Source: a virus. From it: a stretch of DNA of 41,626 bases. Within the stretch, counting starts at the first letter, position 1; each line of letters begins with the position of its first letter. The translations under genes and the position numbers were made by a program. The notes under the pieces were generated by a model. It was not told the origin of the DNA. It saw nothing but the letters and a program-made list of their open reading frames with translations, and did no database searches. This document shows positions 6,101 through 32,243 of this stretch, piece by piece. Location: positions 1 to 41,626 of the IMG/VR virus record IMGVR_UViG_3300032242_002603, one strand, 5' to 3'.

Positions 6101-7440
6101 ATCTTGTGATGATAGACCGCGATGCAGATGGCATGCTGAATCGGAACTCCATCAACTCGACGAGTTTCGCTCTGGAGCATGGACAGCTGGACTATCCCGG
6201 CTATACAAATATCCCGCCCGGTGCAGAGCGTGCTGCCGCAATGCGTCCCATATACGAGGCTTACATAAGAGCAACAAACCAAGCACTCGCCGCAGAGCAG
6301 GCCATGCATGCTGCACGAGGAAATTTGCAAACTGCTAATTATGAACACTTAGCCGAACAGCTGACAGAAGGTCAGCGCGGTTACAACCAGCAAGTCGCCA
6401 CTCAAATCGCTAGGCAGGCGAGAACCCATGGTGTCCCTGTGGAAGAAGTTATGGACATGATCCGCAACGGGGCAAGGACTTATGGCGGATACTCGGTAGA
6501 CCTAAGTGCTTTTTCCCCCGGCCAGCTCGAAGTTTTAGCGCGTGATGCGCATCGAATGATGACTTTCAACCAAGGCCACGCCGAAGGCGGCGCAATTCGC
6601 CACTATGCTAAAGGAGGCGCTGTGTCAGCACCATCGAAAGCCGTTCAGGACATCCTGTACAATAACCCGCCGCCTGCCCCGATGGGCGAAAATCCCTATG
6701 CAGACGTAAAAACTGTGCAGCAATACCAAAGCATGGACCAGCCCAGCCCTTATTTCCGTGGGCTTACCATGAATCAGTACTACAGCCTAGCTCCGGAAGA
6801 TCGGGCGGCAGTGGATGCGCAGGCTAAAATCGATCACCCTATTGCTTCTGGGGTGGGTGATTTTATAAAAATGGGGCTTATTCCAGGGAGCATGGCATTC
6901 AGAGCTCTTAGCGACCTTTACCAAAAATACTTCCCTGGTCCGCCCGCTGTGCCCGAAGCCGCCTACACCGGCGACTACAGCACTTTGACGCCCGAGCAGA
7001 AAACTCAATATGAGAACGTGATAGCTGGGCAGCCTTCCATTTACGATAAAGGGCTGATGAGTGTAAATACTTCCCCACAAACCACAGCCACTGTCTGGAC
7101 AGGACGTGATGGTCTGCCGATAATGTCGGGCGGGGTGCCGGTGATGACTGGCTATGGCGCATACTTAGGTCCACAGCAAGAACTTGGTCGCACGATAGAG
7201 TCTGCATTTAGCGAAGGCGAGTCTCCCGGCGACACACAGAGTTTTGCTGAGGCAAGTGCCGCAAGAGATGCAGCAGATGCCGCTCAGCAACGCGCCGAGC
7301 AGACCAGTCAAGACAGCAGAACAGACAGCGATTCGCACCCCGGAGAAGGCGGTGCGGGTGCATCGATGAAAAAAGGCGGCGCTGTGCGTAGGAAGCCGAC
7401 CACTGAACAGATGCGTTTCGAACTAATGATGAGGAAATAA
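3136..7440 (+). CDS. Large multidomain phage protein with PcfJ-like HCVG domain and KGG motifs
   Basis: This 1434-aa protein is the longest in the window. Residues about 640-770 hold a block with GCLDHCVGQGG, later LGHIRDASTGMPAATIEF, then a YDVGYVSG segment and a helix ending IRDYLNSRA. That order (HCVG, then a [RH]D..G.P..TIE strand, then a K/G-rich strand and a helix) matches the PcfJ-like domain known from conjugative elements and phage polyvalent proteins; its biochemistry is not established. Residues 1148-1161 carry the paired motif HAEGG-AIRH-YAKGG, and 1411-1415 carry MKKGG just before the C-terminus. The region around 440-490 is helical and may be coiled coil. A gene this large between terminase and portal suggests an injected or virion-associated protein, which is inference. 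Confidence 0.85.
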   Translation: MATNDWDNPNTPLVNDINEPSTLDEWNRLNTEAMYRAKQRVQPVSSLLSKAQEGTAAGTDVARTLLGGPAAAIGGAWQALLSGEPSSVEQNQYDLYKRLAQPSTRQGQAFEENVAGALEASKLPPVFPEAAGLAGRGFTPNDARVIAAEAKNFGKQVREIPTDFTNAQSGLTRIDPLTGKPTIGTKLQGVAEGVGDIIAQREAAGKSAIPALLDAKMNIVRPEGTRILRAKQPEGGADIKINSNRSGQVDTLDPLLGELNDFTMIDRSAPVSMVVEDYLRTYMDLTNRNNRLHDQNWNKTALKQARELFPDAPDDQTALSAMTTRYGGAHTNEMDQQKLRALDEYAKSPEAAEAVAQGATPIPSVDDFYKMHEASNKWRNNNLGNFISKYSGTASDPALKLAEQGLTFSDPSELLRLQPEYEYRARINRELAQMPEDGIIAPKLEAKQYELDQAVQYQNEIGNEGDPNAQRAAGDKVAKLRKEVDNLKIGAAYENAVDASVRPANAQSLAEDLNYENRQYFPSLTGEKDPNALAYRLKSGFVERLGFDQIAAQMHKDILSGKIALDKVPNISVDAYIKKNAEARKAAQEVEENQKLLYTSTVKKRFSDMAQNLPPDAMKFGNAFVLESTSDTPQAEVMQRASDDTGCLDHCVGQGGSASQRGYTVHPFTGREKSTYEPIMRLDLPGVPNPKASDRAQTETTSYIRGVLNGNKQLGHIRDASTGMPAATIEFIKLGPNKYDVGYVSGPAEVGGATNGPIDEKYHNAIRDYLNSRADQINETSSPLSRNTSIYDTADQGYSGGAVEAGYRDNHDLRAAYPDLPRFITKEDAQAIREGTYQMPEPSPSRAVAPALPAVEQQELVNNLGDYLEHMYGEIEQNAGDNAQHGREIADTVRNMVNRAYHNVSFHHGTGQFLQELGNAFAQTNDYSVGMALESIISGIEEHHHNVGGLAPPAVAPGMAGRDLFPAPRGVPEHDQELTFTDPHSIASHLVMIDRDADGMLNRNSINSTSFALEHGQLDYPGYTNIPPGAERAAAMRPIYEAYIRATNQALAAEQAMHAARGNLQTANYEHLAEQLTEGQRGYNQQVATQIARQARTHGVPVEEVMDMIRNGARTYGGYSVDLSAFSPGQLEVLARDAHRMMTFNQGHAEGGAIRHYAKGGAVSAPSKAVQDILYNNPPPAPMGENPYADVKTVQQYQSMDQPSPYFRGLTMNQYYSLAPEDRAAVDAQAKIDHPIASGVGDFIKMGLIPGSMAFRALSDLYQKYFPGPPAVPEAAYTGDYSTLTPEQKTQYENVIAGQPSIYDKGLMSVNTSPQTTATVWTGRDGLPIMSGGVPVMTGYGAYLGPQQELGRTIESAFSEGESPGDTQSFAEASAARDAADAAQQRAEQTSQDSRTDSDSHPGEGGAGASMKKGGAVRRKPTTEQMRFELMMRK

Positions 7441-7443
7441 TCC

Positions 7444-9957
7444 ATGGCCACTGAAATGCCAATCCCCCAAGACTACGGGCGCTTTGTGGATCCGATGGAG
7501 CAGGAAGAGCACGTTTCGGTTAACGACTTGTTCGACCAAGACACTTCGGATGTGGAAGAGTTGGAGGATGGCTCGGCGATTGTGCGCATGGACGACCTGA
7601 AAGGTCCAGAAGAAGAACCCGACTTTTACGCCAATCTTGCTGACCAATTCGATGCGTTGGACCTGGAAAGCAAGGCGCTCAAGTATCTGGACCTGATCGA
7701 AAAAGACAAACAGGCTCGTGAAGACCGCGACAAGCAATATGAAGACGGGTTGCGGCGCACCGGCTTAGGCCACGACGCACCGGGCGGTGCACAGTTTATG
7801 GGTGCCTCCAAAGTTGTTCATCCTGTGATGGCTGAGGCTTGTGTAGACTTTGCCGCCCGCGCAATCAAGGAACTTTTCCCGCCAGATGGTCCTGTAAAGA
7901 CCAAAATCATCGGAGAGGTCTCTGAAGAAAAACTGTCTCGTGCCGAGCGTAAGCGCGACTACATGAACTGGCAGCTCACCGAACAGATCGAAGAATACCG
8001 AGACGAGCAGGAACAGATGCTAACGCAGCTACCGCTGGGCGGCTCGCAATACCTGAAGCTCTGGTGGGACGAACAGAAAAAGCGCCCCTGCGCCGAATTT
8101 ATCCCAATCGACAATGTGTATCTGCCTTTTGCGGCTGGCAATTTCTACACAGCCAGCCGCATGACAGAGGTGCAAGACATAACGCAGGAAGAATTCGACC
8201 TGCGTGTTTCTTCCGGGCTTTACATCGACACCGACGTGTTCCGCACGTCCATGGCACCCGACGAGACTAAGTCGGAAAAGGCCAACGATAAAATCGAAGG
8301 CAAGCGCCAAAAGGCGGATAACGTGGACGGCGTACGCCGCGTGTTCCACATCCATCTCTGGCTCGAAGAAGAGGACGACAAGTTCTCTAAAGGCGCTCGC
8401 GCCCCGTACATCATGATGGTGGACGAGGTGACGCGCAACGTGGTCGGTCTGTACCGCAACTGGGAAGACGGCGACGACGCCTATACCAAGCTCGACTGGA
8501 TCGTCGAGTTCAAGTTCATCCCATGGCGCGGCGCGTATGCAATTGGGCTGCCCCACCTGATCGGCGGGCTGTCCGCCGCACTGACCGGGGCGCTGCGTGC
8601 ATTGCTGGACACCGCACACATCAACAACTCGGCCACGATGCTGAAGCTCAAGGGCGCAAAGATCAGCGGTCAGAGCCAAGTCGTCGAGCCGACGCAGGTT
8701 GCCGAGATCGAAGGCGCTCCCGGCGTGGACGATATCCGCAAGATCGCCATGCCCATGCCGTTCAACGCGCCATCGCCGGTGCTTTTCCAGCTCCTAGGCT
8801 GGCTTACCGATGCAGCTAAGGGTGTGGTGACGACCAGCGAAGAAAAAATCGCCGACGTCACAAGCAACGCCCCGGTGGGTACGACGCAAGCGCTCATCGA
8901 GCAAGGCGCGGCTGTTTTCAGCTCCATCCATGCGCGGCTGCACGATTCTCAGCGCCGAGTTCTGCGCATTTTGGCGCGGATCAACCGCTGGTACCTCGAC
9001 GAGCAACGTCGCAACGAACTTGTGGAAGACCTAGAAGTTACCCAGGACGATTTCCGCACCAATTCGGATGTGATCCCGGTTAGTGACCCGCACATCTTTG
9101 CAGAGAGCCAACGCTACGCCCAGATCCAAACGCTCGCCGCCCGCGCCGCTGCTAACCCGGATCTGTACAACCGGCTGGCGGTGGAAAAGCGCATCCTGAA
9201 ACAGATAAAGCTGCCCGAGATAAACGAAGTCCTGCCAGACCCACAAGATGTAAAAGACATGAACCCGGCGCTGGAGAATGTGGCGATGACGCTCGGTAAG
9301 CCGGTGGGTGCATTCCCGATGCAAGATCATATGGCGCATTTTATGGCGCACTTGCAGTACGCGCTAGACCCGATCTTTGGCTCCAATCCTATCGTCGCTC
9401 CGGTGTTCATCCCATCTTGCTTGGAGCATCTGAAGCAGCACCTGACGATGTGGTATTTGACGATGGCGGATGGCTACACAAGCGCTGCGCTGGGTCGTCC
9501 TTACAATGTGCTCAAGATCGAGCCTACCATGCGTGAGGCGCAGAAACTCCTCGCCGCTGCTTTACAGCACGTGCACATGGACAGTCGTCAACAACTCGCT
9601 CCGGTGGGTCAGGCGATTGGCCAAATGATGCACTTGATGAAACAGCTGCAGATGCAGATGCAGCCGAATCAGCCCTCTCCGCCGATCGACCCAAACATCG
9701 TCGCGCAGGTGCAGGCGGTTACACAAACCTCTATTGCCGAGACGCAACGCAAAGCGCAGAAAGACGTGATCGATGCACAGCTCGAAGAACAAAAGATTCA
9801 AGCCGATGCAGCCAAAAACACCGAAGACAATTTGGTGCAAGAGCGGATGAAAGCCGCGCAGCTTTCTAACGAAGCTGCACAGTTACAGCATGAGCAACTG
9901 AAAACTGCCCTCGAAGCTCAACGCCATACACAGGCAAACCTAGGAGAAATGAAATGA
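7444..9957 (+). CDS. Portal protein
   Basis: This 837-aa protein starts four bases after the preceding stop behind GAGGAAA, a good ribosome site. The N-terminal 80 residues are very acidic. A conserved core then follows, with GASKVVHPVMAEACVDFAAR (about 120-139), the ELFPPDGPV segment, a helical MNWQLTEQIEEYRDEQEQML block and FIPIDNVYLPFAAG. This layout is typical of the P22 gp1/SU10-like portal group. The C-terminal 130 residues are Gln/Ala/Lys-rich helix (KAQKDVIDAQLEEQKIQADA), like the portal barrel. The dodecameric portal forms the DNA entry vertex and anchors the tail adaptor proteins encoded further right. Size and order downstream of terL agree. Confidence 0.92.
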   Translation: MATEMPIPQDYGRFVDPMEQEEHVSVNDLFDQDTSDVEELEDGSAIVRMDDLKGPEEEPDFYANLADQFDALDLESKALKYLDLIEKDKQAREDRDKQYEDGLRRTGLGHDAPGGAQFMGASKVVHPVMAEACVDFAARAIKELFPPDGPVKTKIIGEVSEEKLSRAERKRDYMNWQLTEQIEEYRDEQEQMLTQLPLGGSQYLKLWWDEQKKRPCAEFIPIDNVYLPFAAGNFYTASRMTEVQDITQEEFDLRVSSGLYIDTDVFRTSMAPDETKSEKANDKIEGKRQKADNVDGVRRVFHIHLWLEEEDDKFSKGARAPYIMMVDEVTRNVVGLYRNWEDGDDAYTKLDWIVEFKFIPWRGAYAIGLPHLIGGLSAALTGALRALLDTAHINNSATMLKLKGAKISGQSQVVEPTQVAEIEGAPGVDDIRKIAMPMPFNAPSPVLFQLLGWLTDAAKGVVTTSEEKIADVTSNAPVGTTQALIEQGAAVFSSIHARLHDSQRRVLRILARINRWYLDEQRRNELVEDLEVTQDDFRTNSDVIPVSDPHIFAESQRYAQIQTLAARAAANPDLYNRLAVEKRILKQIKLPEINEVLPDPQDVKDMNPALENVAMTLGKPVGAFPMQDHMAHFMAHLQYALDPIFGSNPIVAPVFIPSCLEHLKQHLTMWYLTMADGYTSAALGRPYNVLKIEPTMREAQKLLAAALQHVHMDSRQQLAPVGQAIGQMMHLMKQLQMQMQPNQPSPPIDPNIVAQVQAVTQTSIAETQRKAQKDVIDAQLEEQKIQADAAKNTEDNLVQERMKAAQLSNEAAQLQHEQLKTALEAQRHTQANLGEMK

Positions 9958-10298
9958 GCGATGATTTCGTAAATATGCACAAACGCATTGCCATGGGGCA
10001 AGCCGGTGCTGAGGCCCACTTGAAGCGCGGCGGCAAAGTCGCCAAATACGCTAAAGGCGGAAGCGTCAAAAAACCTGACGAGGTGATGTGGGATGAGCCC
10101 GCCGGTGCTGAACAAAACCGCATTGGCGCTGTGCCTGAGAAAAAAGCGCACACCCTTATTCGTGACAGCAGCCAAAAGCTGCCATACCCAAAACCCGGAG
10201 CAAAGATCGCCACGATGAAAAAAGGCGGTCATGCTAAAGGCGGGCTAACAATTGCGATTGTTGCGCCCATGAAGAAGAGCGTAGGTCGGGGTCGCTAG
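9954..10298 (+). CDS. Small basic KGG-motif protein
   Basis: This 114-aa protein starts in an ATGA overlap with the portal stop. It carries LKRGG (residues 23-27) followed after four residues by YAKGG (32-36), then MKKGG (88-92) and HAKGG (93-97). The middle is Pro/Lys-rich and the C-terminus is Lys/Arg-rich (MKKSVGRGR), making the protein strongly basic. The paired GG motif is the same as in the His-rich protein at 15305 and the 1434-aa protein. Position between portal and head genes suggests a virion component or assembly factor; nucleic-acid or membrane binding are both possible. No family with known function is recognised. Confidence 0.8.
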   Translation: MSDDFVNMHKRIAMGQAGAEAHLKRGGKVAKYAKGGSVKKPDEVMWDEPAGAEQNRIGAVPEKKAHTLIRDSSQKLPYPKPGAKIATMKKGGHAKGGLTIAIVAPMKKSVGRGR

Positions 10299-10483
10299 TG
10301 CAAATTAGCGCCTTACTAACCCTTGTCAAGCAAAAGCAGCGAGAGATCGCTGATTCGATGGCTAGCGGTCATTGCGCGAGCTTTGAGCGCTACCAGTACT
10401 TGTCAGGGATGCACGCAGGTTTGCAAGAAACCTTGAGTCTTATTAACAATCTTTTGGAAGAGGAAAAGAGAGATGACGTATGA
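10298..10483 (+). CDS. Small helical protein, GTG start
   Basis: This 61-aa protein starts with GTG at 10298, overlapping the TAG stop of the previous gene by one base, and ends 11 nt inside the co-chaperonin gene. It is predicted almost entirely helical (VKQKQREIADSMASG, then GLQETLSLINNLLEEEKRDD), with an aromatic FERYQYLSGMHAG segment between the two helices. Small proteins of this shape are frequent in phage head modules. No function is known to me. Overlap with both neighbours supports it as a real gene. Confidence 0.7.
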   Translation: MQISALLTLVKQKQREIADSMASGHCASFERYQYLSGMHAGLQETLSLINNLLEEEKRDDV

Positions 10484-10892
10484 TGTTGAACAAACGCTTG
10501 AAGAAGCGTTTCCGGTAATTGACCCGCTTATGGCGCCGTATGGCGCTCGTGTTCTCGTGCAATTGAGAGCAGTGAAAGACAAGGTCACAAGCAGTGGTAT
10601 TTACATCCCCGAAGAATCGAAAGAAACTGAAAAGTGGAACACCATGATTGGTAAAGTCCTTGCCGTTGGCCCATTGGCGTTCAAAAAGCGCGACACGATG
10701 GAGCCTTGGGTTGAGGGTGTCTGGTGCCAAGTCGGCGAATACGTCCGCGTGCCTAAATGGGGCGGCGATCGCTGGGAAATTGATTTCGAGGAAAATGGTG
10801 TAAAAGGTAAAGCACTGTTCACATTCTTTAACGATCATGAGATCATCGGTAAAGTAACCGGCGATCCTCGGGCCATTAAAGCGTTTATCTAA
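10473..10892 (+). CDS. GroES-like co-chaperonin
   Basis: This 139-aa protein matches the Cpn10 fold. After about 20 extra N-terminal residues come YGARVLVQLRAVKDK and the mobile-loop region VTSSGIYIPEES (GroES uses a GGIVL loop to dock GroEL). Next are the TMIGKVLAVGPLAF strand, which corresponds to the GKVLAVG core of Cpn10, and VGEYVRVPKWGG. E. coli GroES is 97 aa and T4 gp31 is 111 aa, so this version is longer, mainly at the N-terminus and in the 75-100 segment. T4 gp31 replaces GroES to let host GroEL fold the capsid protein. Location just before scaffold and capsid genes suggests the same job. No GroEL gene is present, so host GroEL is the likely partner. Confidence 0.92.
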   Translation: MTYDVEQTLEEAFPVIDPLMAPYGARVLVQLRAVKDKVTSSGIYIPEESKETEKWNTMIGKVLAVGPLAFKKRDTMEPWVEGVWCQVGEYVRVPKWGGDRWEIDFEENGVKGKALFTFFNDHEIIGKVTGDPRAIKAFI

Positions 10893-10909
10893 GTTTTGAA
10901 GGAAACTTT

Positions 10910-11893
10910 ATGACACCCACTGACAAAATGGAGATGCAGATCTCCGAGGAAACCGATGGAGGCGCTGTAGTTGTGCTTCCTGAGGGTATGGAAACACAGG
11001 TCGAAATCGTTGAACCCACGCGCAATGATTCGTCTAACGATGACCCTGATGAAAAATTCTCGCAAAATGACGGTTTAGACAACGACCCTGACCGAGAAGC
11101 TATCCGCGCCGCTCGGCGCGAGGAGCGAAAGCTCAAAAAACAGATCCACCGCGAGAAAGCTCGTGAGTCGAGCCACCTGGTTAGCTCGCTCAAACAGCAA
11201 AATCAGGCGCTGGCGGATCGTTTAGCTGCTCTGGAACAGAAAAGTTCCGGTGCCGAGATGGCTCGAGTTGACAAAGCCATTGACGATGCGGCTGTTCAGC
11301 TTGAATATGCCAAGATGAAAATGAAAACTGCTGTGGAAACTCGTGACGGCGAAGGCGTCACCAAGTCACAGGAGATGTGGTTTGAGGCGCAACGACAGCT
11401 CGAGTCGCTGCAAAACCTGAAACAGCGCGCATCTCAGCAAAATTCTCAGCAGAAACAGACCATAAATGCTCCTGACCCTGTAGTGGCGCGGATGGCTGCT
11501 GATTGGATGCAAGAAAATCCCTGGTACGACCCACAAGGTGGCAACGAAGAGTCGCAAATTGCGCAAGTTGTCGATAAGCGCCTTATTGCTGAAGGTTTCG
11601 ACCCGACTTCTCCTGACTACTGGGACGAGCTGACTGACCGGGTTAAAAAATATATCCCTGAATCTCCCAAACAGGGTTATAATGGCGACAATCCCCGTCC
11701 ACAAAGGCCCAGATCGGTTATGACGAGTTCAGGTAGAGAAACAGCTGGAACGACTAAGTCTAACGAATTTAGACTCAGTCCACAGCGCGTCGCCGCAATG
11801 AAAGAAGCGGGACTCTGGAACAACCCCGAACTCCGTCAAAACGCCATTCGCAAATATGCCGAATGGGATCGCAGCAACAAACAAAGAGGCTAA
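10910..11893 (+). CDS. Scaffolding-type head assembly protein (putative)
   Basis: This 327-aa protein follows a good ribosome site (AAGGAAA). The N-terminal 60 residues are acidic (NDSSNDDPDEKFSQNDG). Residues about 62-110 are a highly charged helix (AARREERKLKKQIHREKARE) running into coiled coil (LKQQNQALADRLAALEQK), with more helix to about 170. The C-terminal part has NPWYDPQGGN and TSPDYWDELTDRVKKYIPE, then a basic linker and LSPQRVAAMKEAGLW. An acidic start, long coiled coil and position upstream of the capsid gene are typical of phage scaffolds. No prohead protease is visible, so a P22-like exit or reuse of scaffold is possible. Sequence alone does not prove the role. Confidence 0.75.
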   Translation: MTPTDKMEMQISEETDGGAVVVLPEGMETQVEIVEPTRNDSSNDDPDEKFSQNDGLDNDPDREAIRAARREERKLKKQIHREKARESSHLVSSLKQQNQALADRLAALEQKSSGAEMARVDKAIDDAAVQLEYAKMKMKTAVETRDGEGVTKSQEMWFEAQRQLESLQNLKQRASQQNSQQKQTINAPDPVVARMAADWMQENPWYDPQGGNEESQIAQVVDKRLIAEGFDPTSPDYWDELTDRVKKYIPESPKQGYNGDNPRPQRPRSVMTSSGRETAGTTKSNEFRLSPQRVAAMKEAGLWNNPELRQNAIRKYAEWDRSNKQRG

Positions 11894-11895
11894 TC

Positions 11896-12429
11896 ATGGA
11901 CGAACGACTCAAAAGAAATAATCCTGCAAATCGCTCAACTCGTGCACAAGAAGACGCATCGCGTCGCGCGCCCGAGGAACAATTTGTTTCGTCTGAGGAG
12001 CGCCGTAGAGCGTTCCGTTCGGAATGGCTTCAGGAAGCTCTTCCGACCCCGCCTGAGATTCCGGGCTTCCACTTGTGCTGGCTATCTTCAACCAATCAGT
12101 ACGACCCAATCCACAAACGCACTCGCCTTGGATACACACAGGTGAAAGCCGACGAATTGCCCGGCTTTGATACCTATAAAGTGAAATCTGGGGAACACGA
12201 GGGCTTTGTCGCCTGCAACGAGATGTTGCTGTACAAACTTCCCATGGACATTTACCAGGACTTGATGTCAGAAATGCATCACTACGCTCCGCTAGATGAA
12301 CAAGAGAAAATTCAAGTGCAGCAAGAACAGTTGATGGGCAACAAGGACAGTAGTGGTAGGCCGCTGGTTATGATTGAGGGTGATGGCATGAAGTTTGACC
12401 AAACCGCAAAGCTACCTGTTTTCAGGTAA
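11896..12429 (+). CDS. Conserved head-module protein of unknown function
   Basis: The ATG at 11896 gives MDERLKRNNP and lies two bases after the scaffold stop with AGAGG upstream; I prefer it to an in-frame start at 11863 that would overlap scaffold. The product is 177 aa. The first 45 residues are charged and probably disordered. A compact central domain follows, including IPGFHLCWLSSTNQYDPIHK, then RTRLGYTQVKADELPGFD and an EGFVACNEMLLYKLP segment. A helical C-terminus ends MIEGDGMKFDQTAKLPVFR. Proteins with the GFHLCWLS..N..D.I..R..LGY pattern are common beside capsid genes of environmental podoviruses, but I know of no assigned role. Confidence 0.8.
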   Translation: MDERLKRNNPANRSTRAQEDASRRAPEEQFVSSEERRRAFRSEWLQEALPTPPEIPGFHLCWLSSTNQYDPIHKRTRLGYTQVKADELPGFDTYKVKSGEHEGFVACNEMLLYKLPMDIYQDLMSEMHHYAPLDEQEKIQVQQEQLMGNKDSSGRPLVMIEGDGMKFDQTAKLPVFR

Positions 12430-12452
12430 TTTCAACTTCAGGAGTTTAGACT

Positions 12453-13043
12453 ATGTCTTCTACAAATGCTCCATTCGGTTTGCGCCCCGCGTTTTTCCCA
12501 ACGGGTCTGGAACGCGCTCAGGCAATTACGAATGGTATCACCTCGGGGTATTCCTCGAACATTCTCAAGGGTCAACCTATCGTCTATGGCACCACCGCTA
12601 ATGGTGGTACCTTGGGCACTGTGATTCCCGCCGCTGCCACTGGTACAGTTACCGGCTCCTTTCAAGGTGTCGAGTGGACTGATACTACCGGTCGTCGTCG
12701 TGTTTCCAATTATTGGCCTGCAAGCACCACCGGCACCAACATCATTGCGTATTTCTACAATGATCAACAGATCATTTATGAAATCCAAAGTGATGCCACG
12801 CTGGCGCAAACTTCGATGGGCAATGAGTACAACTTCAGCAACGTGACTGCTGGTTCCACGACCACTGGTCTGTCCGCTGCTACACTCGGCGCTTCAACTG
12901 CAGTTGGCAATGGTTCGCAAGGGCAAATGCGTGTTGTTGATCTCGCGCCTTACGTCGACAACAACTGGGGGGATGCATACGTTATCGTGCGCGTCCAGAT
13001 CGTCAACACGCAATGGTTCGGTGCCTTCACCGCTACCGCATAA
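12453..13043 (+). CDS. Capsid decoration-type structural protein
   Basis: This 196-aa protein is preceded by AGGAG at good spacing. It starts SSTNAPFGLRPAFFPTG, a start seen in many phage proteins encoded directly before the major capsid gene. The body is beta-rich with few charged residues: ITSGYSSNILKGQPIVYG, VTGSFQGVEWTDTTGRRR, then a NIIAYFYNDQQIIYEIQ strand pair and a C-terminal DAYVIVRVQIVNTQWFG. This suits a small protein bound on the outside of the capsid lattice. It ends 14 nt before the capsid gene, with the next ribosome site in between. The role is inferred from context and composition. Confidence 0.72.
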   Translation: MSSTNAPFGLRPAFFPTGLERAQAITNGITSGYSSNILKGQPIVYGTTANGGTLGTVIPAAATGTVTGSFQGVEWTDTTGRRRVSNYWPASTTGTNIIAYFYNDQQIIYEIQSDATLAQTSMGNEYNFSNVTAGSTTTGLSAATLGASTAVGNGSQGQMRVVDLAPYVDNNWGDAYVIVRVQIVNTQWFGAFTATA

Positions 13044-13057
13044 TTAGGAGCTAAACC

Positions 13058-13972
13058 ATGGCCGCACCAATGAGAAGTACGGACTTCCGTTCGATCGTTG
13101 AGCCTATTCTCAACGAAGCATTCGACGGGGTCTACGATCAACGCGCTGACGAATGGTCCACGGTTTTCCGTGAACAATCCGGTATCCCGCGTAACTACCA
13201 CGAAGAGCCTGTCCTGTATGGATTCGGCGCAGCACCGCAGTTGCCTGACGGTTCGCCTGTGTCGTACCAACAAGGTGGCGTTCTGTTCCTGCAACGCTAC
13301 GTCTACCAAGTGTTTGGTCTTGCTTTTGCACTGACCAAGGTCTTGGTTGAAGACGGCGACCATATCCGCATCGGTCAGGTTTATGCTAAGCACTTGGCAC
13401 AATCTTTGGTGGAAACCAAAGAACTGCTCTGCGCTAACATCCTGAATCGCGCTTTCAATAGCTCATACACCGGCGGTGATGGCGTTTCTTTGATTAACTC
13501 TGCTCACCCGATCGCAATCGGCACTTTTAGCAACCAGCTCAGCACTGCTGCTAACTTGTCGCAAACTTCGCTCGAGCAGATGTTGATTCAAGTGCGTCAA
13601 GCAGTCGACAACAACGGCAAGAAGATCCGCCTGCAACCCGTTAAACTGGTTGTTGCTCCTGGTAACGTCTTCCAAGCCGAAGTGCTGCTCAAGTCTGTTC
13701 TGCGTACCGGCACCGCCAACAACGACATCAACCCGATCAAATCGATCGGTCTGTTGCCTGAAGGCGCTTCGGTTATCAGCCGTCTGACCTCGGCGACCAA
13801 CTGGTGGGTCCAAACCGACGCACCCGAAGGTCTAAAGGTTATGATGCGCCGTGCGCTGGAAAAGACCATGGAAGGTGATTTCGAAACCGACTCCATGCGC
13901 TACAAAGCTACCGAGCGTTACATTCCTAACTGGACTGACCCTCGCTGCCTGTATGGCACTCCTGGCGTATAA
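13058..13972 (+). CDS. Major capsid protein
   Basis: This 304-aa protein has a strong ribosome site (TTAGGAG) and is followed by an intrinsic terminator. The N-terminal STDFRSIVEPILNEAFDGVY and helix-rich middle (YAKHLAQSLVETKELLCANI) lead to HPIAIGTFSNQLSTAANLSQ and KIRLQPVKLVVAPG. A late segment reads TSATNWWVQTDAPEG, followed by a basic RRALEKTMEGDFETDSMRYK stretch. These features agree with HK97-fold capsid proteins, in particular a spine helix and an SAHP..G substrate-like loop shared with Mu gpT-type relatives. Codon use appears biased toward few synonyms, as expected for the most expressed virion gene. The co-chaperonin and scaffold genes lie just upstream. Confidence 0.9.
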   Translation: MAAPMRSTDFRSIVEPILNEAFDGVYDQRADEWSTVFREQSGIPRNYHEEPVLYGFGAAPQLPDGSPVSYQQGGVLFLQRYVYQVFGLAFALTKVLVEDGDHIRIGQVYAKHLAQSLVETKELLCANILNRAFNSSYTGGDGVSLINSAHPIAIGTFSNQLSTAANLSQTSLEQMLIQVRQAVDNNGKKIRLQPVKLVVAPGNVFQAEVLLKSVLRTGTANNDINPIKSIGLLPEGASVISRLTSATNWWVQTDAPEGLKVMMRRALEKTMEGDFETDSMRYKATERYIPNWTDPRCLYGTPGV

Positions 13973-13981
13973 GCCAAAGCG

Positions 13982-14008
13982 GGGCTGGCTAATCCCAGCC
14001 CTTTTTTT
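13982..14008 (+). terminator. Rho-independent terminator after the capsid gene
   Basis: The stem GGGCTGG (13982-13988) pairs with CCAGCCC (13995-14001) around a six-base loop and is followed at once by seven T residues. It lies ten bases after the capsid stop, so it probably limits read-through from the head operon into the next virion genes. Confidence 0.92.
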
Positions 14009-14040
14009 GATCTTGTCATACTTTTCATGGAGCAGACAAA

Positions 14041-15294
14041 ATGCCTCAATTTTCGGACGATCTCTTTCTAGGAACCGGTGCAACCTACATGGGCACTGGT
14101 AATGGTGCAGCAACTTCGGTTTTCACTGGCACCATCTCGACCACCACGCTGACTGTTCAGTCTACACAGTCTGGCGACCCTCTGGTCGTTGGTCAATACA
14201 TCGTAGGTTCTAGCGTAACTGCTAACTCCTACATCACCGCCTCGCTGGGATTTAACTCCAGCGGTCTGGCGCAATATACCCTTTCGCAATCGTCTACGGT
14301 TTCTTCGAACACCACGATGTATGCTTCGGGTAATGCGTTGCTTGGCGACCCTGCTCCGATGTCGCTTGGTGTTGGTCCGCTGGGTCGTTTGTACGTCTAC
14401 GACACAATCCCACAGACCCTTCAAGCTGCAAACATCGCTGCTTCGCAGACGCAAACTGCAGCTGGCGCTCTGACGCTTACCGCAGGCACTTCGGCTAAGT
14501 CTGTTGTCCGTACAGACGGCTCAACGGTGATTCAGCTGGACGTGCCTCGTGCAGTTAGCGTTACCACTGGAACCGCCACTGGCTCTACGCTGGCTGGTGT
14601 GGCGACTACCGGAACTGGTGGCCAGATTTCTTTCACGTCCAACACCAGTGTTTACACCGGCCAATACGTGACTGTTTCTGGAACAGCAGGTGGAACTGGT
14701 TCTATCACCAGCTATAGCAACCCCACCACCTACATCCTGTCGGCTGTGACTGCAACTAGCGCTACTTTGCTGACTACTGCCAGCGGTGCTGTTGCTTCTG
14801 TTGCAGGTACGATCACAGGATTGACATTCACCTTGGGCGCTGCACCTCGTGTCATGACTGTTTCTGGCTACGACTACTACGGCCAAGCAATGACCGAATC
14901 GATCACGAGCAGCTCTTCAGTGAGCACTGCTGTGAGTGGTAAGAAAGCGTTCTACCAAATCGCTTCTATCACCAGTGCAGGCGCTACCGGAACTGCCGTG
15001 ACTTCTGGAACGACTGATGTCTTAGGTTTGCCTGTGCGCGTTATTGATGCTGGCTATTTGGTCAGTATTGGTTGGGCAGGCGCGGTTGCCCGCGACACTG
15101 GTGGTAACCAAGCGTTTGTCGCTGCAGACATGACTAACCCTGCCACCAGCACAACTGGTGACGTACGGGGCACCTATCTGCCATCCACTGCATCCAATGG
15201 ATCTCGGCGTTTGGTGATTGGAATCGCAGTCCCTGCAATTGCAGTTGGCCCAAATGCGACCCGCACTGGTGCCCTCGGCGTAACTCAAGCTTAA
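14041..15294 (+). CDS. Beta-rich virion structural protein
   Basis: This 417-aa protein starts behind GGAG and consists largely of Ser/Thr/Gly/Ala/Val beta-strand repeats with almost no charged residues in the middle. Residues about 24-70 form a module (FTGTISTTTLTVQSTQSGDP, VVGQYIVGSSVTANSYIT) of a type found as inserts in capsid and tail proteins. A related block occurs at about 175-255. The C-terminal 100 residues (VRVIDAGYLVSIGWAGAVAR onward) look like a more conserved domain. Context between capsid and tail genes suggests a head fibre, decoration or tail-accessory protein. Which of these cannot be decided. Confidence 0.75.
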   Translation: MPQFSDDLFLGTGATYMGTGNGAATSVFTGTISTTTLTVQSTQSGDPLVVGQYIVGSSVTANSYITASLGFNSSGLAQYTLSQSSTVSSNTTMYASGNALLGDPAPMSLGVGPLGRLYVYDTIPQTLQAANIAASQTQTAAGALTLTAGTSAKSVVRTDGSTVIQLDVPRAVSVTTGTATGSTLAGVATTGTGGQISFTSNTSVYTGQYVTVSGTAGGTGSITSYSNPTTYILSAVTATSATLLTTASGAVASVAGTITGLTFTLGAAPRVMTVSGYDYYGQAMTESITSSSSVSTAVSGKKAFYQIASITSAGATGTAVTSGTTDVLGLPVRVIDAGYLVSIGWAGAVARDTGGNQAFVAADMTNPATSTTGDVRGTYLPSTASNGSRRLVIGIAVPAIAVGPNATRTGALGVTQA

Positions 15295-15304
15295 GGAGTA
15301 GATC

Positions 15305-16378
15305 ATGGCAACTAAATTTGGCCGCGAGCCGAAAATGCAGACCACCGAGCCTTCGGATGATGAGGTGGGTGGCGGTATGAAACGCGGCGGGCATGCGCAT
15401 AAAAAGCACATGGCAATGGGAGGCGAAATGCCTCCTACGCCGATGCGCGGTCGTGCTGGTATGGCTGGTTCACGTGGGGCTTTGCTTTCTAAGCCTCGCG
15501 TTTCTATGCCTATGCCTCCTCCCGCCATGGGCGCTGGTATGCCTCCCGGAGCTAGCCCAGCCATGAAAAAAGGCGGGAAAATGCATCACCATGCTGAAGG
15601 CGGCGATGTCGCTCAAGACAAGGCGATGATCAAAAAGGCATTCAAGCAGCATGATGCGCAGGAACACAAAGGCGCTAAGGGCACGCATCTGTCGCTTAAA
15701 AAAGGCGGCAAAACTCACCACTATGCTAAAGGTGGTGGTGTAAAAGATGCTGGCCCAGATACTCCCGGCGGATTGCTGGGTGGCATCGAAGCGACTCGTC
15801 CTGTGTCCAAAAAAGGCACTGGCACGATCCTTGGCCCTGGCTACAAGCATGGCGGTCATACCAAAAAGCACCACATGGCTAAGGGTGGCACGATGCACCC
15901 TGCAATCGACGTGCAAGACAAAGTCGTCGAGGCTAAGCAGACCAAGAGCTTGAGCACCAAGACAGGTGGTGTTGAGGGTAAGGGCTACAAACACGGTGGC
16001 CATACCAAAAAACATCACATGGCTGATGGCGGGACTGTTCCCCAAAGCGTTGCAGGTAAATACCTTAATGACATGCATGATGGCGAGAAGATGCCTACCA
16101 AAAAAGGCAAAACTGGCGAGATCAAGCAGCAACCTGCTGGCTATAAGCGCGGCGGTCATGTGAAGCACGAGCACCACAAACACGGCGGCCACGTTGAGCA
16201 CCACACCACTCATGGTCATAAAGATCACGGGCATGAGCACATGCACAAACATGTTGCCAAGCATCATCACGGCCACGACAAAATCGACGGTCATCCGATG
16301 AAACACGGCGGAAGTGCACGCCATCACACTACCAAAGTGTCTACGCACAAGAAAAAAGGCGGCGCTTGCAACTACTAA
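15305..16378 (+). CDS. His-rich KGG-repeat protein
   Basis: This 357-aa protein has a strong ribosome site (TTAAGGAG). Fourteen short glycine-pair motifs were counted by eye, arranged mostly as pairs: MKRGG/MAMGG (25-40), MKKGG/HAEGG (87-100), LKKGG/YAKGG (131-144), YKHGG/MAKGG (180-195), YKHGG/MADGG (228-243), YKRGG/HKHGG (280-294), then MKHGG (332-336) and KKKGG (349-353) near the C-terminus. About 45 residues are histidine, concentrated after residue 280. Between repeats are a Met/Pro-rich linker (about 65-85) and a short helix (DKAMIKKAFKQHDAQEH). The protein must be strongly basic at acidic pH and could bind metal, nucleic acid or other virion proteins. No characterised homologue is known to me. 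A terminator follows. Confidence 0.85.
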   Translation: MATKFGREPKMQTTEPSDDEVGGGMKRGGHAHKKHMAMGGEMPPTPMRGRAGMAGSRGALLSKPRVSMPMPPPAMGAGMPPGASPAMKKGGKMHHHAEGGDVAQDKAMIKKAFKQHDAQEHKGAKGTHLSLKKGGKTHHYAKGGGVKDAGPDTPGGLLGGIEATRPVSKKGTGTILGPGYKHGGHTKKHHMAKGGTMHPAIDVQDKVVEAKQTKSLSTKTGGVEGKGYKHGGHTKKHHMADGGTVPQSVAGKYLNDMHDGEKMPTKKGKTGEIKQQPAGYKRGGHVKHEHHKHGGHVEHHTTHGHKDHGHEHMHKHVAKHHHGHDKIDGHPMKHGGSARHHTTKVSTHKKKGGACNY

Positions 16379-16383
16379 AAGCC

Positions 16384-16407
16384 GGGGAGCTTCGGCTCCC
16401 CACTTTT
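16384..16407 (+). terminator. Rho-independent terminator with TTCG loop
   Basis: GGGGAGC (16384-16390) pairs with GCTCCCC (16395-16401) around a TTCG tetraloop, followed by AC and four T residues. The stable UUCG-type loop and position six bases after the KGG-repeat gene stop support a terminator. The T-tract is short, so termination may be partial. Confidence 0.8.
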
Positions 16408-16424
16408 AACTCATAGGTGAAACA

Positions 16425-19058
16425 ATGTCAGAACTATCCGTCTACACTGGCCCAACTTCGAACACTGACAATCAATTGCGCCTTCAACAAGCGCAACGCT
16501 CGGGCGCGTATGATCCTGTTGACAAGGTGCGTGTATCGACACCTCAGTCGCTGATTGACACCGATTTTGAGTATGGCCAACAGCCAACCAAATGGGAGCA
16601 AATCTCCCTTCAAAACAATCGCCAGTCGCTTTATTATTTGGCGAATGCGGCACTTCCTGTTTCAGCTATCTCCGGAAATCAGTCAAATCTTTACCAGTTG
16701 GTCGTTACATTCTCGTCGAATGTGACTATTGCCACCGGAACCTCATTTTTTATAGAAGACACAATCGACCCGAACGCCCAAGGCTGGGCATATGTCGTTT
16801 CAGGCGTTAGTTCTGGTACTTCTATTACCGTTCAGGTGCAGAACCAAGTAACCACTGTTAATAACTATTCAGCTGCTGCCACATACTGCTACCAAGGTTA
16901 CACCTATTCAAACTGCGGCATTGCGTTGACTGGAACGACTGCGTTCACATTTAGCGGTTCTACAGTTACCTGCACAACTTCGTTCCCGCATGGTTTATCT
17001 GCAAATTCTGCAGTATTTATCACTGGAACCACTGGTCCTAGCACTGCAACTCAGATAAATGGTGCTCAGGTTGTCGCTACAACTCCGACAGCCAACACAT
17101 TCACATTTACGAATGTAAATGGGACACCTTCTACGACTATTGCAAACACCGCTGGCCAGACTAACTTGTATGCGCGTCCTGTTGGATGGGTAGACTGCCA
17201 CGCTTATGATGGCTCTGTCAACTTCACTGCTGGCGCGGCTGTTCCAAATCAACAGTTGTACCGTCAGACTCGTCGTTATTTCCGTTACCAGTCTGGCAAA
17301 GGCATTCAGTTTTCCACTGGTACGATCTTAAAACCACAGATCGCATTCACAACGCTTACAGCGTCAGGTACTACAGTCACTGTAACTTGTAAAGTTCCGC
17401 ACAACTTGACAGTCGGTACATATGTACAGATAGCTGGTTTTGATCAATCTGCTTACAATGGAATTTTTAAGATTGTTACAGTTTCTAGTGCATTGATATT
17501 TACTTACACTGCTTTGTCTGTACCTTCGGCATCGACCGCAACCAGTACTGTCCCGTTGATTCCTCACGTAAGTCCGTATTCCTGGTATGGCTCTAGCAAC
17601 AAAATTGGTTTTTTCGACAGCCAAAATGGCATGTTTTTCCAATTTGATGGCCAAACTTTGTATTGCGTGCTGCGTAACAGCGTTAACCAAATAACTGGAA
17701 CCGTGACTGCGACCCAGAATAGCTCTTTGGTCACTGGCTCTAGCACGCAATTTACGACTCAGTTAGTTGTTGGTGATTACATTGTAATTCGAGGCCAAAC
17801 GCATCGCGTCACGACCATCACCAGCGACACACAGTTGTACATCACACCTGAATATCGCGGTGCAACCATCTCCAACGTATTGGTATCTCGCGTGGTTGAG
17901 ACTCGAGTCCCACAGTCGCAATGGTGGGACGTGTGCGACGGGTCTAATTCAATTTCGAATCCATCCGGCTACCTGCTTGACCTTACCAAAATTCAGATGT
18001 TCTACATCGACTACTCTTGGTATGGTGCTGGCGTAGCCCGTTTCGGTTTTCGTGCAACCAATGGCCAAATCATTTACGTATACGGTTACCAGAACAACAA
18101 CGTGCAGTACCAAGCTTATTTGCGCTCAGGCAATTTGCCTTCGCATTATGAGCAAAACACTGTGTTGCCATTGACAACCATCACTGCTAGCATCAAAACA
18201 ACTGATTCTACGATCAGTGTTCTGGACACTTCTAGTTTCAACCCGGCAGGAGGAGCCGCTCGAATCATTGGTAACGGCGTTTCTGGTACGATCGAGTACA
18301 TTGCCTATACCGGACTCACTTCGACGTCTCTAACGGGCGTTACGCGTGGCCAAACGGGCGGTTCTGCGGCAACGGCGTTCACCTATTCTGCGACAGCGCC
18401 TATCGCTGTTGAATATGCGTCTCCTGACAGTGCTTCTCAGTTATCACACTGGGGTTCATCGGTGGTGATGGACGGCGGATACACGACCGACGTTTCGTTG
18501 ATCTACAACTACGGCATGACGTCAGCTATCTCAACTACCGGAACAACCGCTATCCCAATCATGGCTATTCGCGTCGCACCTTCTGTAGACAATGGCACAG
18601 TGGGAACTCTGGGTGTTAAAGAGATCATCAACCGCCTGCAGTTGCAGATGCGTGAAATTGCTATGTTGACCACCACTAGCTACTTGGTTCAGTTCATTTT
18701 GAACGGTGTTATTGGCGGCACAAGCGGATTTACTTCATTTACTTCACCAACGCAAAACAACACCAACACGACCTCCATCGTGCAAGTGGCTACCAATACC
18801 AATACTTCGACCACTATCACTGGCGGTGAATCAATTGCGGCGTTCTTTACCAACACCGCAGGGCAGACCACTTTGGACTTGACATCTGTTGCGCCTTTTG
18901 GTAACAGCATTTTGGGCGGTGGACTGACAAATACCGTCCCGACTAGCCAAGCTGGAACTTACCCTGATGGCCCGGATATTTTGTATGTGACAGTGAGCCA
19001 AAACGGTTCCAATGGAACTGCATTCGCTCGTCTGTCTTGGCAAGAATCGCAGGCCTAA
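16425..19058 (+). CDS. Large beta-rich virion protein, probably tail or capsid-associated
   Basis: This 877-aa protein starts behind AGGTGA. It opens with a charged region containing FEYGQQPTKWEQISLQNNRQ, then is nearly all beta-strand. Two similar modules, around 165-220 and 310-360, contain the pattern TVT[CT]..[FV]PH.L...[ST].V.I.G, which resembles small ubiquitin-like or Ig-like inserts. A block near 520-580 (LDLTKIQMFYIDYSWYGAGV, then FGFRATNGQIIYVYGY and LPSHYE) belongs to a pattern I recognise from many phage virion proteins, possibly a jelly-roll or lectin-like fold. The C-terminal part again contains long Thr/Ser-rich strands. Function is not known; adhesion or a structural shell role is likely. 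Confidence 0.78.
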   Translation: MSELSVYTGPTSNTDNQLRLQQAQRSGAYDPVDKVRVSTPQSLIDTDFEYGQQPTKWEQISLQNNRQSLYYLANAALPVSAISGNQSNLYQLVVTFSSNVTIATGTSFFIEDTIDPNAQGWAYVVSGVSSGTSITVQVQNQVTTVNNYSAAATYCYQGYTYSNCGIALTGTTAFTFSGSTVTCTTSFPHGLSANSAVFITGTTGPSTATQINGAQVVATTPTANTFTFTNVNGTPSTTIANTAGQTNLYARPVGWVDCHAYDGSVNFTAGAAVPNQQLYRQTRRYFRYQSGKGIQFSTGTILKPQIAFTTLTASGTTVTVTCKVPHNLTVGTYVQIAGFDQSAYNGIFKIVTVSSALIFTYTALSVPSASTATSTVPLIPHVSPYSWYGSSNKIGFFDSQNGMFFQFDGQTLYCVLRNSVNQITGTVTATQNSSLVTGSSTQFTTQLVVGDYIVIRGQTHRVTTITSDTQLYITPEYRGATISNVLVSRVVETRVPQSQWWDVCDGSNSISNPSGYLLDLTKIQMFYIDYSWYGAGVARFGFRATNGQIIYVYGYQNNNVQYQAYLRSGNLPSHYEQNTVLPLTTITASIKTTDSTISVLDTSSFNPAGGAARIIGNGVSGTIEYIAYTGLTSTSLTGVTRGQTGGSAATAFTYSATAPIAVEYASPDSASQLSHWGSSVVMDGGYTTDVSLIYNYGMTSAISTTGTTAIPIMAIRVAPSVDNGTVGTLGVKEIINRLQLQMREIAMLTTTSYLVQFILNGVIGGTSGFTSFTSPTQNNTNTTSIVQVATNTNTSTTITGGESIAAFFTNTAGQTTLDLTSVAPFGNSILGGGLTNTVPTSQAGTYPDGPDILYVTVSQNGSNGTAFARLSWQESQA

Positions 19059-19059
19059 T

Positions 19060-19623
19060 ATGCCTAGCAAATCGCCCGCCCAACACCGATTGATGGAAGC
19101 AGCCGCCCATACTAAGGGCGGTTTCGGAGGCGTTTCACAAAAAGTCGGCAAAGAGTTTGTCGAAGCTGACAAGAAAATGAAAAAAGGTGGTTTATATGCC
19201 AACATACATGCAAAACAGCAAAGAATCGCTGAAGGCTCTGGTGAACACATGCGTAAGCCGGGTTCAAAAAACGCTCCAACTGCTGAAGCCTTCCGAGAGT
19301 CCGCTAAAACGGCTAAAAAGATGGCTAGCGGCGGTCCAAGTCTATCTGTCGGGCGAAAAGAAAAGCTCCCCACCAGCCAAGGCGCAGGACTAACTGCAAA
19401 GGGTCGGGCAAAAGCTAACCGCGCAACTGGCAGTCATCTGCAAGCGCCAGCCCCGCACCCAAAAACAGAAAAAGAATCAGGTCGTAAAAAGTCATTCTGT
19501 GCTAGAATGAGTGGTGTTGTCGAGCATGCGAAAGGCGATGCTCCCAGAGCGAAAGCATCTTTAGCTCGCTGGAACTGCAAAGACGGCGGGTCTGCTAAAA
19601 AATATGACATAAAGGGCTGGTAA
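19060..19623 (+). CDS. Small basic protein with KGG motifs and a GAGLTAKGRAK domain
   Basis: The ATG at 19060 gives MPSKSPAQHRLMEAAAHTKG (187 aa) and lies one base after the preceding stop; an earlier in-frame start would overlap the upstream gene. The N-terminal QHRLM.AA... and VGKEFVEADKKM pattern is a recurrent phage start. MKKGG is at 40-44, MASGG at 88-92 and CKDGG at 173-177. The C-terminal half has GAGLTAKGRAKANRATGS, then KSFCARMSGV and AKGDAPRAKASLARWNC, a conserved small domain common in phages and of unknown function; its conserved cysteines suggest metal binding. The protein is very basic. Nucleic-acid contact within the virion is possible but unproven. Confidence 0.8.
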   Translation: MPSKSPAQHRLMEAAAHTKGGFGGVSQKVGKEFVEADKKMKKGGLYANIHAKQQRIAEGSGEHMRKPGSKNAPTAEAFRESAKTAKKMASGGPSLSVGRKEKLPTSQGAGLTAKGRAKANRATGSHLQAPAPHPKTEKESGRKKSFCARMSGVVEHAKGDAPRAKASLARWNCKDGGSAKKYDIKGW

Positions 19624-31197: not shown

Positions 31198-32243
31198 TGG
31201 GCGCAGTAAGTCAAGTTTTCCAAGCTGTCAGCGACACAGTCCAGCACGTTAGTGATGTCGTGTCGAATGATCCCGTTGCAAAAGCGGCGGCACTCGCCGG
31301 GGCTGCTTATTTGACTGCTGGTCTGATTAACCCTGCAGACGCCGCTGCTCTCGGCGGCGCTGATGTCGGTGCAGCTGATCTCGCTACTTCGATAGCACAG
31401 GGCGGTGCAGGTGATGCGGCTGCTTCATTCGGAGGAAGTGGTAGCCTTTATGATGCAGCGGCGAGTCCGCTGGCTTCGGGTTATGGTGGAGAAACTTCAG
31501 CGGTGGCTTTAGGCAATCAAGCAGTTGCATCGGGTATGGCTCCCGGCGCTTTAGGCGCAAGCATGGCGGCTGAGGGTGCATTGTCGCCTGCAGAATTGGC
31601 AGCTGCGCAGGGTGTGGTAACTGAAGGCTCTGCGCTTTCTGGCTTAGCCTCTGCAGGGAACACTGCTGCATTGTCGGATGCACTCGCCAAGTCTCTCACC
31701 TCTCAAGGCGGTGGTAATTACCAGCAGTTGATAAACACGGCAAAAAGCTCTCTGAATCCAACAGACTCAGGCCAAAATCCTGGCGGTTTTTTGAATGGTG
31801 CGCTTATGGCGGCAGCGCCTTTGTACAATCAAGGTGATTCTCTCCTGAAAGAATTGCCTAAGTTGTACCCACAGATGGAAAATGCGCATGCACCTACTGT
31901 CGCTGCTTTGACAGGTGTGCAAAAAGGCGCGCAGCCGGTAATACCTCAACGATACAAAGACGGCGGACTGTCTCATCACGTCCCCGAGTTTATCACTGGT
32001 GCTACCGGACACTACGTGAAAGGTCGTGGCGACGGGCAATCCGACGACATCCCGGCGATGCTTGCAGATGGCGAATACGTGTTCGACGCCGATACTGTCG
32101 CTGCACTGGGCAACGGGTCTTCGGATGCGGGTGCTAAGCGTTTAGACGAAATGCGAGAACGCATTCGTAAACACAAACGCTCCGCTCCTATACACAAAAT
32201 CCCTCCAAAGGCTAAGTCGCCTTTAGAATACCTCAAAGGATAA
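31197..32243 (+). CDS. Ala/Gly-rich virion protein with C-terminal GRGDGQSD domain
   Basis: This 348-aa protein has an N-terminal 200 residues extremely rich in Ala, Gly and Ser (AAALAGAAYLTAGLINPADA and similar), low in charge and possibly membrane-active. The C-terminal part has YKDGG at 253-257, followed by GRGDGQSDDIPAMLADGEYV, then FDADTVAALGNGSSDAGAKR and a basic tail (RERIRKHKRS). The GDGQSD.IPA.L.DGE[YF]V pattern is a widespread domain in phage tail and internal proteins with no firm function. Together with its position after the hub, this fits a protein ejected with the DNA. Confidence 0.78.
   Translation: MGAVSQVFQAVSDTVQHVSDVVSNDPVAKAAALAGAAYLTAGLINPADAAALGGADVGAADLATSIAQGGAGDAAASFGGSGSLYDAAASPLASGYGGETSAVALGNQAVASGMAPGALGASMAAEGALSPAELAAAQGVVTEGSALSGLASAGNTAALSDALAKSLTSQGGGNYQQLINTAKSSLNPTDSGQNPGGFLNGALMAAAPLYNQGDSLLKELPKLYPQMENAHAPTVAALTGVQKGAQPVIPQRYKDGGLSHHVPEFITGATGHYVKGRGDGQSDDIPAMLADGEYVFDADTVAALGNGSSDAGAKRLDEMRERIRKHKRSAPIHKIPPKAKSPLEYLKG

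What the first reader, a model, noticed from the sequence alone, without database searches (positions are those of the whole stretch)
9954..19623. A paired KGG peptide motif shared by unrelated structural-module proteins
The pattern hydrophobic-K-[KRH]-G-G, four to six residues, then [MYH]-A-x-G-G appears in the 1434-aa protein (residues 1148-1161, plus a lone MKKGG at 1411), the 114-aa protein after the portal (23-36, 88-97) and the His-rich protein at 15305 (about six pairs). Single motifs of the same type occur in the basic protein at 19060 and in the protein at 31197 (YKDGG at 253). The proteins share little else. A common motif in several co-encoded virion-region proteins suggests a shared binding partner, a shared processing event at Gly-Gly, or a tag for packing proteins into the head. 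This is my best candidate for an undescribed system.
Basis: partly seen in the sequence, partly recalled or inferred. Interest (0 to 1): 0.75.

Follow-up and report, generated by a model that had tools for sequence, protein, structure and literature searches.

The report
Shared Gly-Gly tag on phage cargo
Several otherwise unrelated proteins of a freshwater phage family, including large multi-enzyme proteins that are probably injected into the host, carry the same short Gly-Gly peptide and often the same C-terminal tail; this looks like an address label for loading proteins into the virus particle, but nobody has tested it.

Summary
The motif is real and far above chance. In 88 loci of the same phage lineage it occurs 737 times against 60 in shuffled proteins, almost all in four families: the large protein before the portal, the small protein after it, the His-rich protein two genes after the capsid gene, and the DUF6321 protein. 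Portal, capsid, GroES and terminase have essentially none. In ten near-complete contigs the K-[KRH]-GG codons fall 38 times inside the structural module (sense strand), 3 times elsewhere.

Relatives of the large protein are polyvalent proteins (ART-PolyVal, PcfJ, muramidase domains), a class predicted to be packaged and injected. Tails resemble each other even when the preceding 250 residues do not (19% of pairs against 1–4%).

Best reading: a lineage-specific targeting code for loading and co-ejecting head cargo, working like T4 and P1 capsid-targeting peptides but C-terminal or internal, with a disordered multivalent hub (the His-rich protein). Gly-Gly processing is unsupported. No virion data exist; cargo/motif co-occurrence rests on three independent changes. 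New variant of a known kind.

The parts
3136..7440 (+). 1434-aa protein immediately upstream of the portal gene; proposed head cargo (relatives are polyvalent proteins)
   Evidence: ORF; relatives at the same place carry ART-PolyVal PF18760, PcfJ PF14284, ParB and GH108 domains; the window copy itself has no significant Pfam hit
6577..6618 (+). motif pair HAEGG-AIRH-YAKGG, residues 1148-1161 of the 1434-aa protein
   Evidence: low-confidence region in the structure model
7366..7437 (+). C-terminal tail MKKGGAVRRKPTTEQMRFELMMRK (residues 1411-1434); predicted helix at residues 1423-1432
   Evidence: the last codons (AGG AAA) may also serve as the portal ribosome site
7444..9957 (+). portal protein (no motif); landmark
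   Evidence: phrog_1216, E 1.6e-14
9954..10298 (+). 114-aa basic protein with motifs LKRGG/YAKGG and MKKGG/HAKGG
   Evidence: family 72 motifs seen against 1.4 expected, 23 of 24 members
10020..10061 (+). motif pair LKRGG...YAKGG in the 114-aa protein
   Evidence: GG columns invariant or nearly so in 21 relatives
10215..10244 (+). MKKGGHAKGG in the 114-aa protein, within the conserved block IATMKKGG
13058..13972 (+). major capsid protein (no motif); the lineage marker used for the searches
   Evidence: phrog_371, 133 and 4523; 0 motifs in 79 relatives
15305..16378 (+). His-rich 357-aa multivalent protein with 13 motifs; proposed disordered hub
   Evidence: 473 motifs against 15.2 expected in 73 of 73 members; predicted disordered, mean pLDDT 48
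19060..19623 (+). 187-aa basic protein: MKKGG + GLYANI module (phrog_16028), MASGG, C-terminal DUF6321
   Evidence: PF19846 E 4.9e-15; phrog_16028 and phrog_10346; 34 motifs against 3.4 expected in relatives
31953..31967 (+). single YKDGG (residue 253) in the 348-aa protein at 31197, before a domain matching a tape-measure profile; membership of the system is weak
   Evidence: phrog_6090 residues 247-307

Best explanation
The Gly-Gly peptides are short linear targeting signals used during head assembly. A disordered, multivalent protein (15305-16378, 13 motifs) and small basic proteins (9954-10298, 19060-19623) present many copies of phi-[K/A]-x-G-G-x-V. The large protein made just before the portal carries a few internal copies and, at its extreme C-terminus, a Gly-Gly hinge followed by a short amphipathic helix (KKGGAV...TTEQMRFELMM). 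These elements would let a common partner inside the procapsid (scaffold, portal or capsid interior; not identified) gather the large multi-domain protein into the head, so that it is ejected with the DNA and acts early in the host. Shown here: the motif, its enrichment, its restriction to these gene families, the shared tail, the polyvalent domain content of relatives, and predicted disorder. Inferred: presence in virions, a common partner, and loading and ejection.
Against: No virion proteomics for any bearer. Polyvalent proteins of F116, DC33, zth2-2 and two plasmids hardly carry the motif (0-1 copies), so it is not a general feature of the class. About half of the main-clade cargo proteins lack the EQMRxEL-type tail, and the DSL-LC04 clade has few motifs outside the cargo. 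Cargo/motif co-occurrence (40 both, 23 neither, 10 and 2 mixed) rests on only three independent changes on the capsid tree and is not significant. Pag-Yong1 has motifs but no large protein before its portal. The window's own large protein has no significant enzymatic domain hit.
Confidence: 0.5

Rival explanations
1. Nucleic-acid binding: the basic K-x-G-G repeats act like RGG boxes or protamine-like segments that bind packaged DNA; proteins are held in the head by the genome rather than by a protein partner.
For: The small bearers are basic: 23 K+R against 10 D+E in the 114-aa, 61 against 29 plus 45 His in the His-rich, 39 against 15 in the 187-aa protein; the His-rich protein is predicted disordered.
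Against: The large proteins often use acidic versions (HAEGG, MADGG, FAEGG, HADGG), the window's large protein is net acidic (138 K+R against 184 D+E), and conserved hydrophobic positions before and after GG are not needed for charge binding; the C-terminal helix is unexplained.
Confidence: 0.2
2. Flexible linkers only: Gly-Gly peptides are a lineage habit for joining domains and building disordered proteins, spread by module shuffling, without a specific partner.
For: Motifs often lie between predicted domains or near ends, bearer proteins are disordered, and modules are shuffled between proteins.
Against: Specific residues (phi before, K/A, and V/A/I two after GG) and the terminal helix are conserved far beyond a linker; the motif is in practice absent from other multi-domain proteins of the same genomes.
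Confidence: 0.2
3. Proteolytic processing at Gly-Gly: a protease cuts the proteins during head maturation, as T4 gp21 does with its substrates.
For: Gly-Gly is the cut site of some known proteases (own knowledge), and head cargo is sometimes cut (P1 DdrB, T4 Alt; PMC5512222, PMC9026906).
Against: Up to 13 sites within a 357-aa protein; no protease domain among the window proteins scanned with Pfam; the capsid protein and putative scaffold lack the motif.
Confidence: 0.05
4. The C-terminal tail reflects overlap with the translation start of the portal gene (ribosome-binding site) rather than protein function.
For: The last codons contain AGG/CGGAG before the portal ATG.
Against: The core GGxV...M[RK]x[EA]L lies several codons further upstream and its codons differ synonymously (GAA CAA ATG CGC TTT GCG against GAT GAT ATG AAA TTA GCG).
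Confidence: 0.05

Closest known systems
Phage T4 capsid targeting sequence (internal proteins IPI-III)
   Same: Short terminal peptide shared by different basic proteins that are loaded into the head and injected (PMC9026906).
   Different: The T4 signal is N-terminal and is cleaved by gp21; here the element is C-terminal and internal, repeated, and no protease was found.
Phage P1 DarB N-terminal packaging signal
   Same: A large injected defence protein of the polyvalent class directed to the capsid by a short terminal peptide (first 30 residues sufficient; PMC9024508).
   Different: N-terminal and not known to be shared with small multivalent proteins; here C-terminal Gly-Gly plus helix.
Polyvalent proteins of phages and conjugative elements (Iyer et al. 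2017, PMC5512222)
   Same: Relatives of the 1434-aa protein have ART-PolyVal and ParB domains (plus PcfJ and a muramidase) and sit in the late gene block.
   Different: No Gly-Gly motif turned up in the passages of that paper that were searched, and it is nearly absent from the polyvalent proteins of F116, DC33, zth2-2 and two plasmids.
Encapsulin cargo-loading peptides
   Same: Short targeting sequence on cargo of an HK97-fold shell (PMC10960027, PMC8346489 abstracts); usual C-terminal place after a Gly-rich linker is from own knowledge.
   Different: Bacterial nanocompartments, not virions; no sequence comparison or binding evidence here.

Membership tests
Polyvalent protein (1434-aa protein) | Large protein encoded among phage late genes | tested here: met
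   1434 aa between terminase and portal
Polyvalent protein (1434-aa protein) | Recognisable polyvalent enzymatic domains | tested here: inconclusive
   Window copy: no significant Pfam hit. Same-locus relatives: ART-PolyVal, PcfJ, GH108, ParB
Polyvalent protein (1434-aa protein) | Packaged and transferred to the host | not testable with these tools
   No virion proteomics available
T4/P1-type capsid targeting sequence | Short terminal peptide shared by cargo proteins that are otherwise unrelated | tested here: met
T4/P1-type capsid targeting sequence | N-terminal position | tested here: not met
   Tail is C-terminal; only 8 of 42 main-clade cargo proteins have K/A/R-x-GG in the first 60 residues
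T4/P1-type capsid targeting sequence | Peptide is sufficient to bring a foreign protein into the head | not testable with these tools
   Needs a fusion experiment
T4/P1-type capsid targeting sequence | Removal by a prohead protease (T4) | tested here: inconclusive
   No protease domain among the window proteins scanned against Pfam; other proteins not scanned
Double-glycine leader peptides cut by C39-type peptidases | N-terminal leader ending in GG, with a C39 peptidase nearby | tested here: not met
   Motifs are internal, repeated or C-terminal; no peptidase hit in the proteins scanned
KGG stress motif (Pfam PF10685) | Match to the Pfam model | tested here: not met
   No such hit for the motif proteins at E up to 1 or for related small bearers at E up to 0.1

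The most novel reading that the evidence does not exclude
A family of freshwater podovirus-like phages uses an undescribed C-terminal and internal Gly-Gly peptide code, read by a common head-interior partner and organised by a disordered multivalent hub, to load interchangeable multi-enzyme proteins into the capsid.
Probability: 0.35. Interest if true: 0.8.

Novelty: new variant of a known kind. Interest (0 to 1): 0.6.

Why it matters
How phages choose which enzymes to carry inside the head is known for very few cases (T4, P1, N4). A motif that marks cargo by sequence alone would let injected proteins be predicted in many uncultured phage genomes, and a transplantable tail would be a simple handle for loading proteins into phage heads. 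The idea is directly testable once an isolate of this lineage that carries both the large protein and the motif is in hand; the isolates looked at here (Caulobacter RW, CRP-901, HTVC023P, QDWS535) do not carry both.

Tried and rejected
A first motif scan of the viral collection was one base out of frame by my mistake; it found 6 loci and was kept as a chance control. A strict tail pattern found only 3 loci, and tblastn with a consensus tail found nothing in GenBank phages; tblastn with the His-rich protein also found nothing, perhaps because of the low-complexity filter. PDB sequence searches with the 19012 protein, the His-rich protein, a consensus motif peptide and a stand-alone module found nothing. 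Foldseek with the C-terminal model gave one convincing hit, to an uncharacterised Caudovirales protein. The idea that the motif belongs to polyvalent proteins in general was rejected. A tree-based test of cargo/motif co-occurrence has too few independent changes. The GLYANI/DUF6321 protein has relatives in T7-like cyanophages and pelagiphages, but two of those genomes read, P-SCSP1u and Jormungand, lack the motif, so these domains are not the source of the signal.
Full report
Setting. The window is a 41.6-kb viral metagenome record. Its late genes run TerL (775), a 317-aa protein (2177), a 1434-aa protein (3136), portal (7444), a 114-aa protein (9954), GroES (10473), a possible scaffold (10910), two further head-region proteins (11863, 12453), the capsid protein (13058), a 417-aa protein (14041), a His-rich 357-aa protein (15305), a virion structural protein (16425), a basic 187-aa protein (19060) and tail genes. 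The scaffold call is by position only. Closest named relatives by capsid protein are MW202545 from Manatee Spring, Caulobacter phages RW/RLK/KcrB/GB2A and, further off, Roseobacter CRP-901, pelagiphage HTVC023P, DSL-LC04, Alcaligenes QDWS535 and Planktothrix Pag-Yong1.

The observation. The motif is best written phi-[K/A]-x-G-G-x-[V/A/I], with pairs mostly spaced 8-12 residues start to start. Shuffling each protein's own residues gives 0.05-0.26 expected copies against 2-13 seen. In the loci of the lineage (80 from the viral collection, plus the phages fetched and the window) 737 copies stand against 60 expected. They fall in the His-rich family (473 against 15.2; all 73 members), the 114-aa family (72 against 1.4), the large proteins before the portal (36 against 2.6 and 11 against 1.2) and the DUF6321 family (34 against 3.4), while portal, capsid, TerL, GroES and the other head genes stay at or near chance. 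One other family above chance is a repetitive tail protein with VANGG repeats, which looks like a different thing. Copies within the His-rich protein are not independent, since it is built of repeats; the sharing between families is what matters. Codons for the glycines and lysines vary, so selection is on the peptide. In ten near-complete contigs K-[KRH]-GG codons occur 38 times on the sense strand of the structural module (192 kb), once antisense and 3 times in the other 337 kb on both strands.

The motif marks a phage lineage. Of the 80 loci kept, 67 have the peptide in a called gene and about half carry this lineage's capsid, portal or terminase gene within the few kilobases held. Many bearers are further small or disordered proteins that end in a module like KKGG..YAxGG..SSASKRADGCAxRGKTRG. 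The units are shuffled: a stand-alone 75-aa protein (L172) matches the His-rich protein over 44 residues (57%), the 114-aa protein over 36 and the large protein at its motif pair; the 114-aa protein itself matches both others locally.

The largest bearer is probably injected cargo. The gene before the portal is highly variable. Its relatives carry ART-PolyVal (L085, L061, L083, L074, L145), PcfJ (L020, L039, DSL-LC04), ParB (L076, L074) and GH108 muramidase with a peptidoglycan-binding domain (L018, L145). This overlaps the domain repertoire of polyvalent proteins, which Iyer et al. argue are packaged and delivered with the DNA (PMC5512222). The window copy has no significant Pfam match; a DHCVG segment that looks PcfJ-like by eye is only a lead.

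A shared C-terminal tail. Listing the C-termini showed an ending that recurs in these proteins: GG-x-V-x(n)-[ST]-[I/L/V]-[D/E]-x-M-[R/K]-x-[E/A]-L-x(2-4)-basic. A regular expression finds it in 12 proteins of the capsid set plus 5 hits in the motif-scan set, in every case 3-8 residues from the end of a large protein. Because choosing tails by pattern is circular, I also tested all 42 main-clade proteins without selection: among 838 pairs whose upstream 250 residues show no similarity, the last 25 residues resemble each other (z>3) in 19% of pairs, against 1.3-4.2% for four other 25-residue stretches. K/A/R-x-GG falls in the last 45 residues of 30 of the 42, against 4.5 expected. In L018 and L145 a GH108 muramidase lies directly before the tail, whereas the window's own GH108 enzyme is free-standing without it: the tail stays while the domain in front changes. 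A second type, GGxVxR..DNRKYI, was found six times, each time at the very end of the gene before the portal and in two capsid clades. The last few codons may double as the portal's ribosome site, but the core codons lie further upstream and vary synonymously.

Structure. AlphaFold2 with 26 sequences leaves the His-rich protein disordered (mean pLDDT 48), with one long helix at 101-121. For residues 689-1434 of the large protein it gives a fair N-terminal domain, low confidence around the 1148 pair, and an isolated helix at 1423-1432 shortly after MKKGG. Such low-confidence models only suggest disorder.

Mechanism. A short, repeated peptide in disordered segments, shared by small basic proteins and by variable enzyme-bearing cargo, all encoded around the portal and capsid genes, is what a loading code would look like. 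T4 uses a 10-residue N-terminal sequence on internal proteins (PMC9026906) and P1 a 30-residue N-terminal signal on DarB (PMC9024508). Here the candidate signal is C-terminal and internal, and the His-rich protein with 13 copies could act as a multivalent hub. That bearers are in virions, that they share a partner, and that the tail is sufficient are inferences. DNA binding and simple linkers remain serious rivals.

Limits. Loci without a large protein before the portal have at most one motif downstream in 23 of 25 cases, and loci with one have two or more in 40 of 50, but this follows clade: only three independent changes, not significant. Polyvalent proteins elsewhere hardly have the motif. 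No bearer searched has a relative with a solved structure, and the literature searches made here found no description of the motif (open-access library only).

Noticed in passing
window 26385-26909 (+); L018 residues 1276-1406, L145 residues 1734-1862: A free-standing GH108 endolysin in the window occurs fused into the large pre-portal protein of two relatives, directly before the shared tail.
   Followed up: partly
L109, L125, L133, L134, L136, L142, L153, L160, L174: Other phages of the lineage and its surroundings have mostly disordered proteins ending in KKGG..YAxGG..SSASKRADGCAxRGKTRG, a conserved C-terminal module on differing N-termini.
   Followed up: partly
window 19060-19623: The GLYANI (phrog_16028) and DUF6321 modules of this protein are hit as separate pieces in T7-like cyanophages and pelagiphages; two such genomes read (P-SCSP1u, Jormungand) lack the Gly-Gly motif.
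   Followed up: partly
window 36938-39691 (-): Large reverse-strand protein that reads like a DNA polymerase III alpha subunit, with one MKRGG that is probably chance; not searched against a library.
   Followed up: no
window 21056-23674: Tail protein family with repeated VANGG (56 motifs against 8.6 expected in relatives), apparently a separate repeat.
   Followed up: no
L430 (PQ492659, Limnohabitans phage DC33): Filed in GenBank as Inoviridae although it is a 39-kb genome with a 3125-aa protein that contains an ART-PolyVal-like region; the classification looks wrong.
   Followed up: no
window 10473-10892: GroES co-chaperonin gene inside the head module, kept in most relatives.
   Followed up: no
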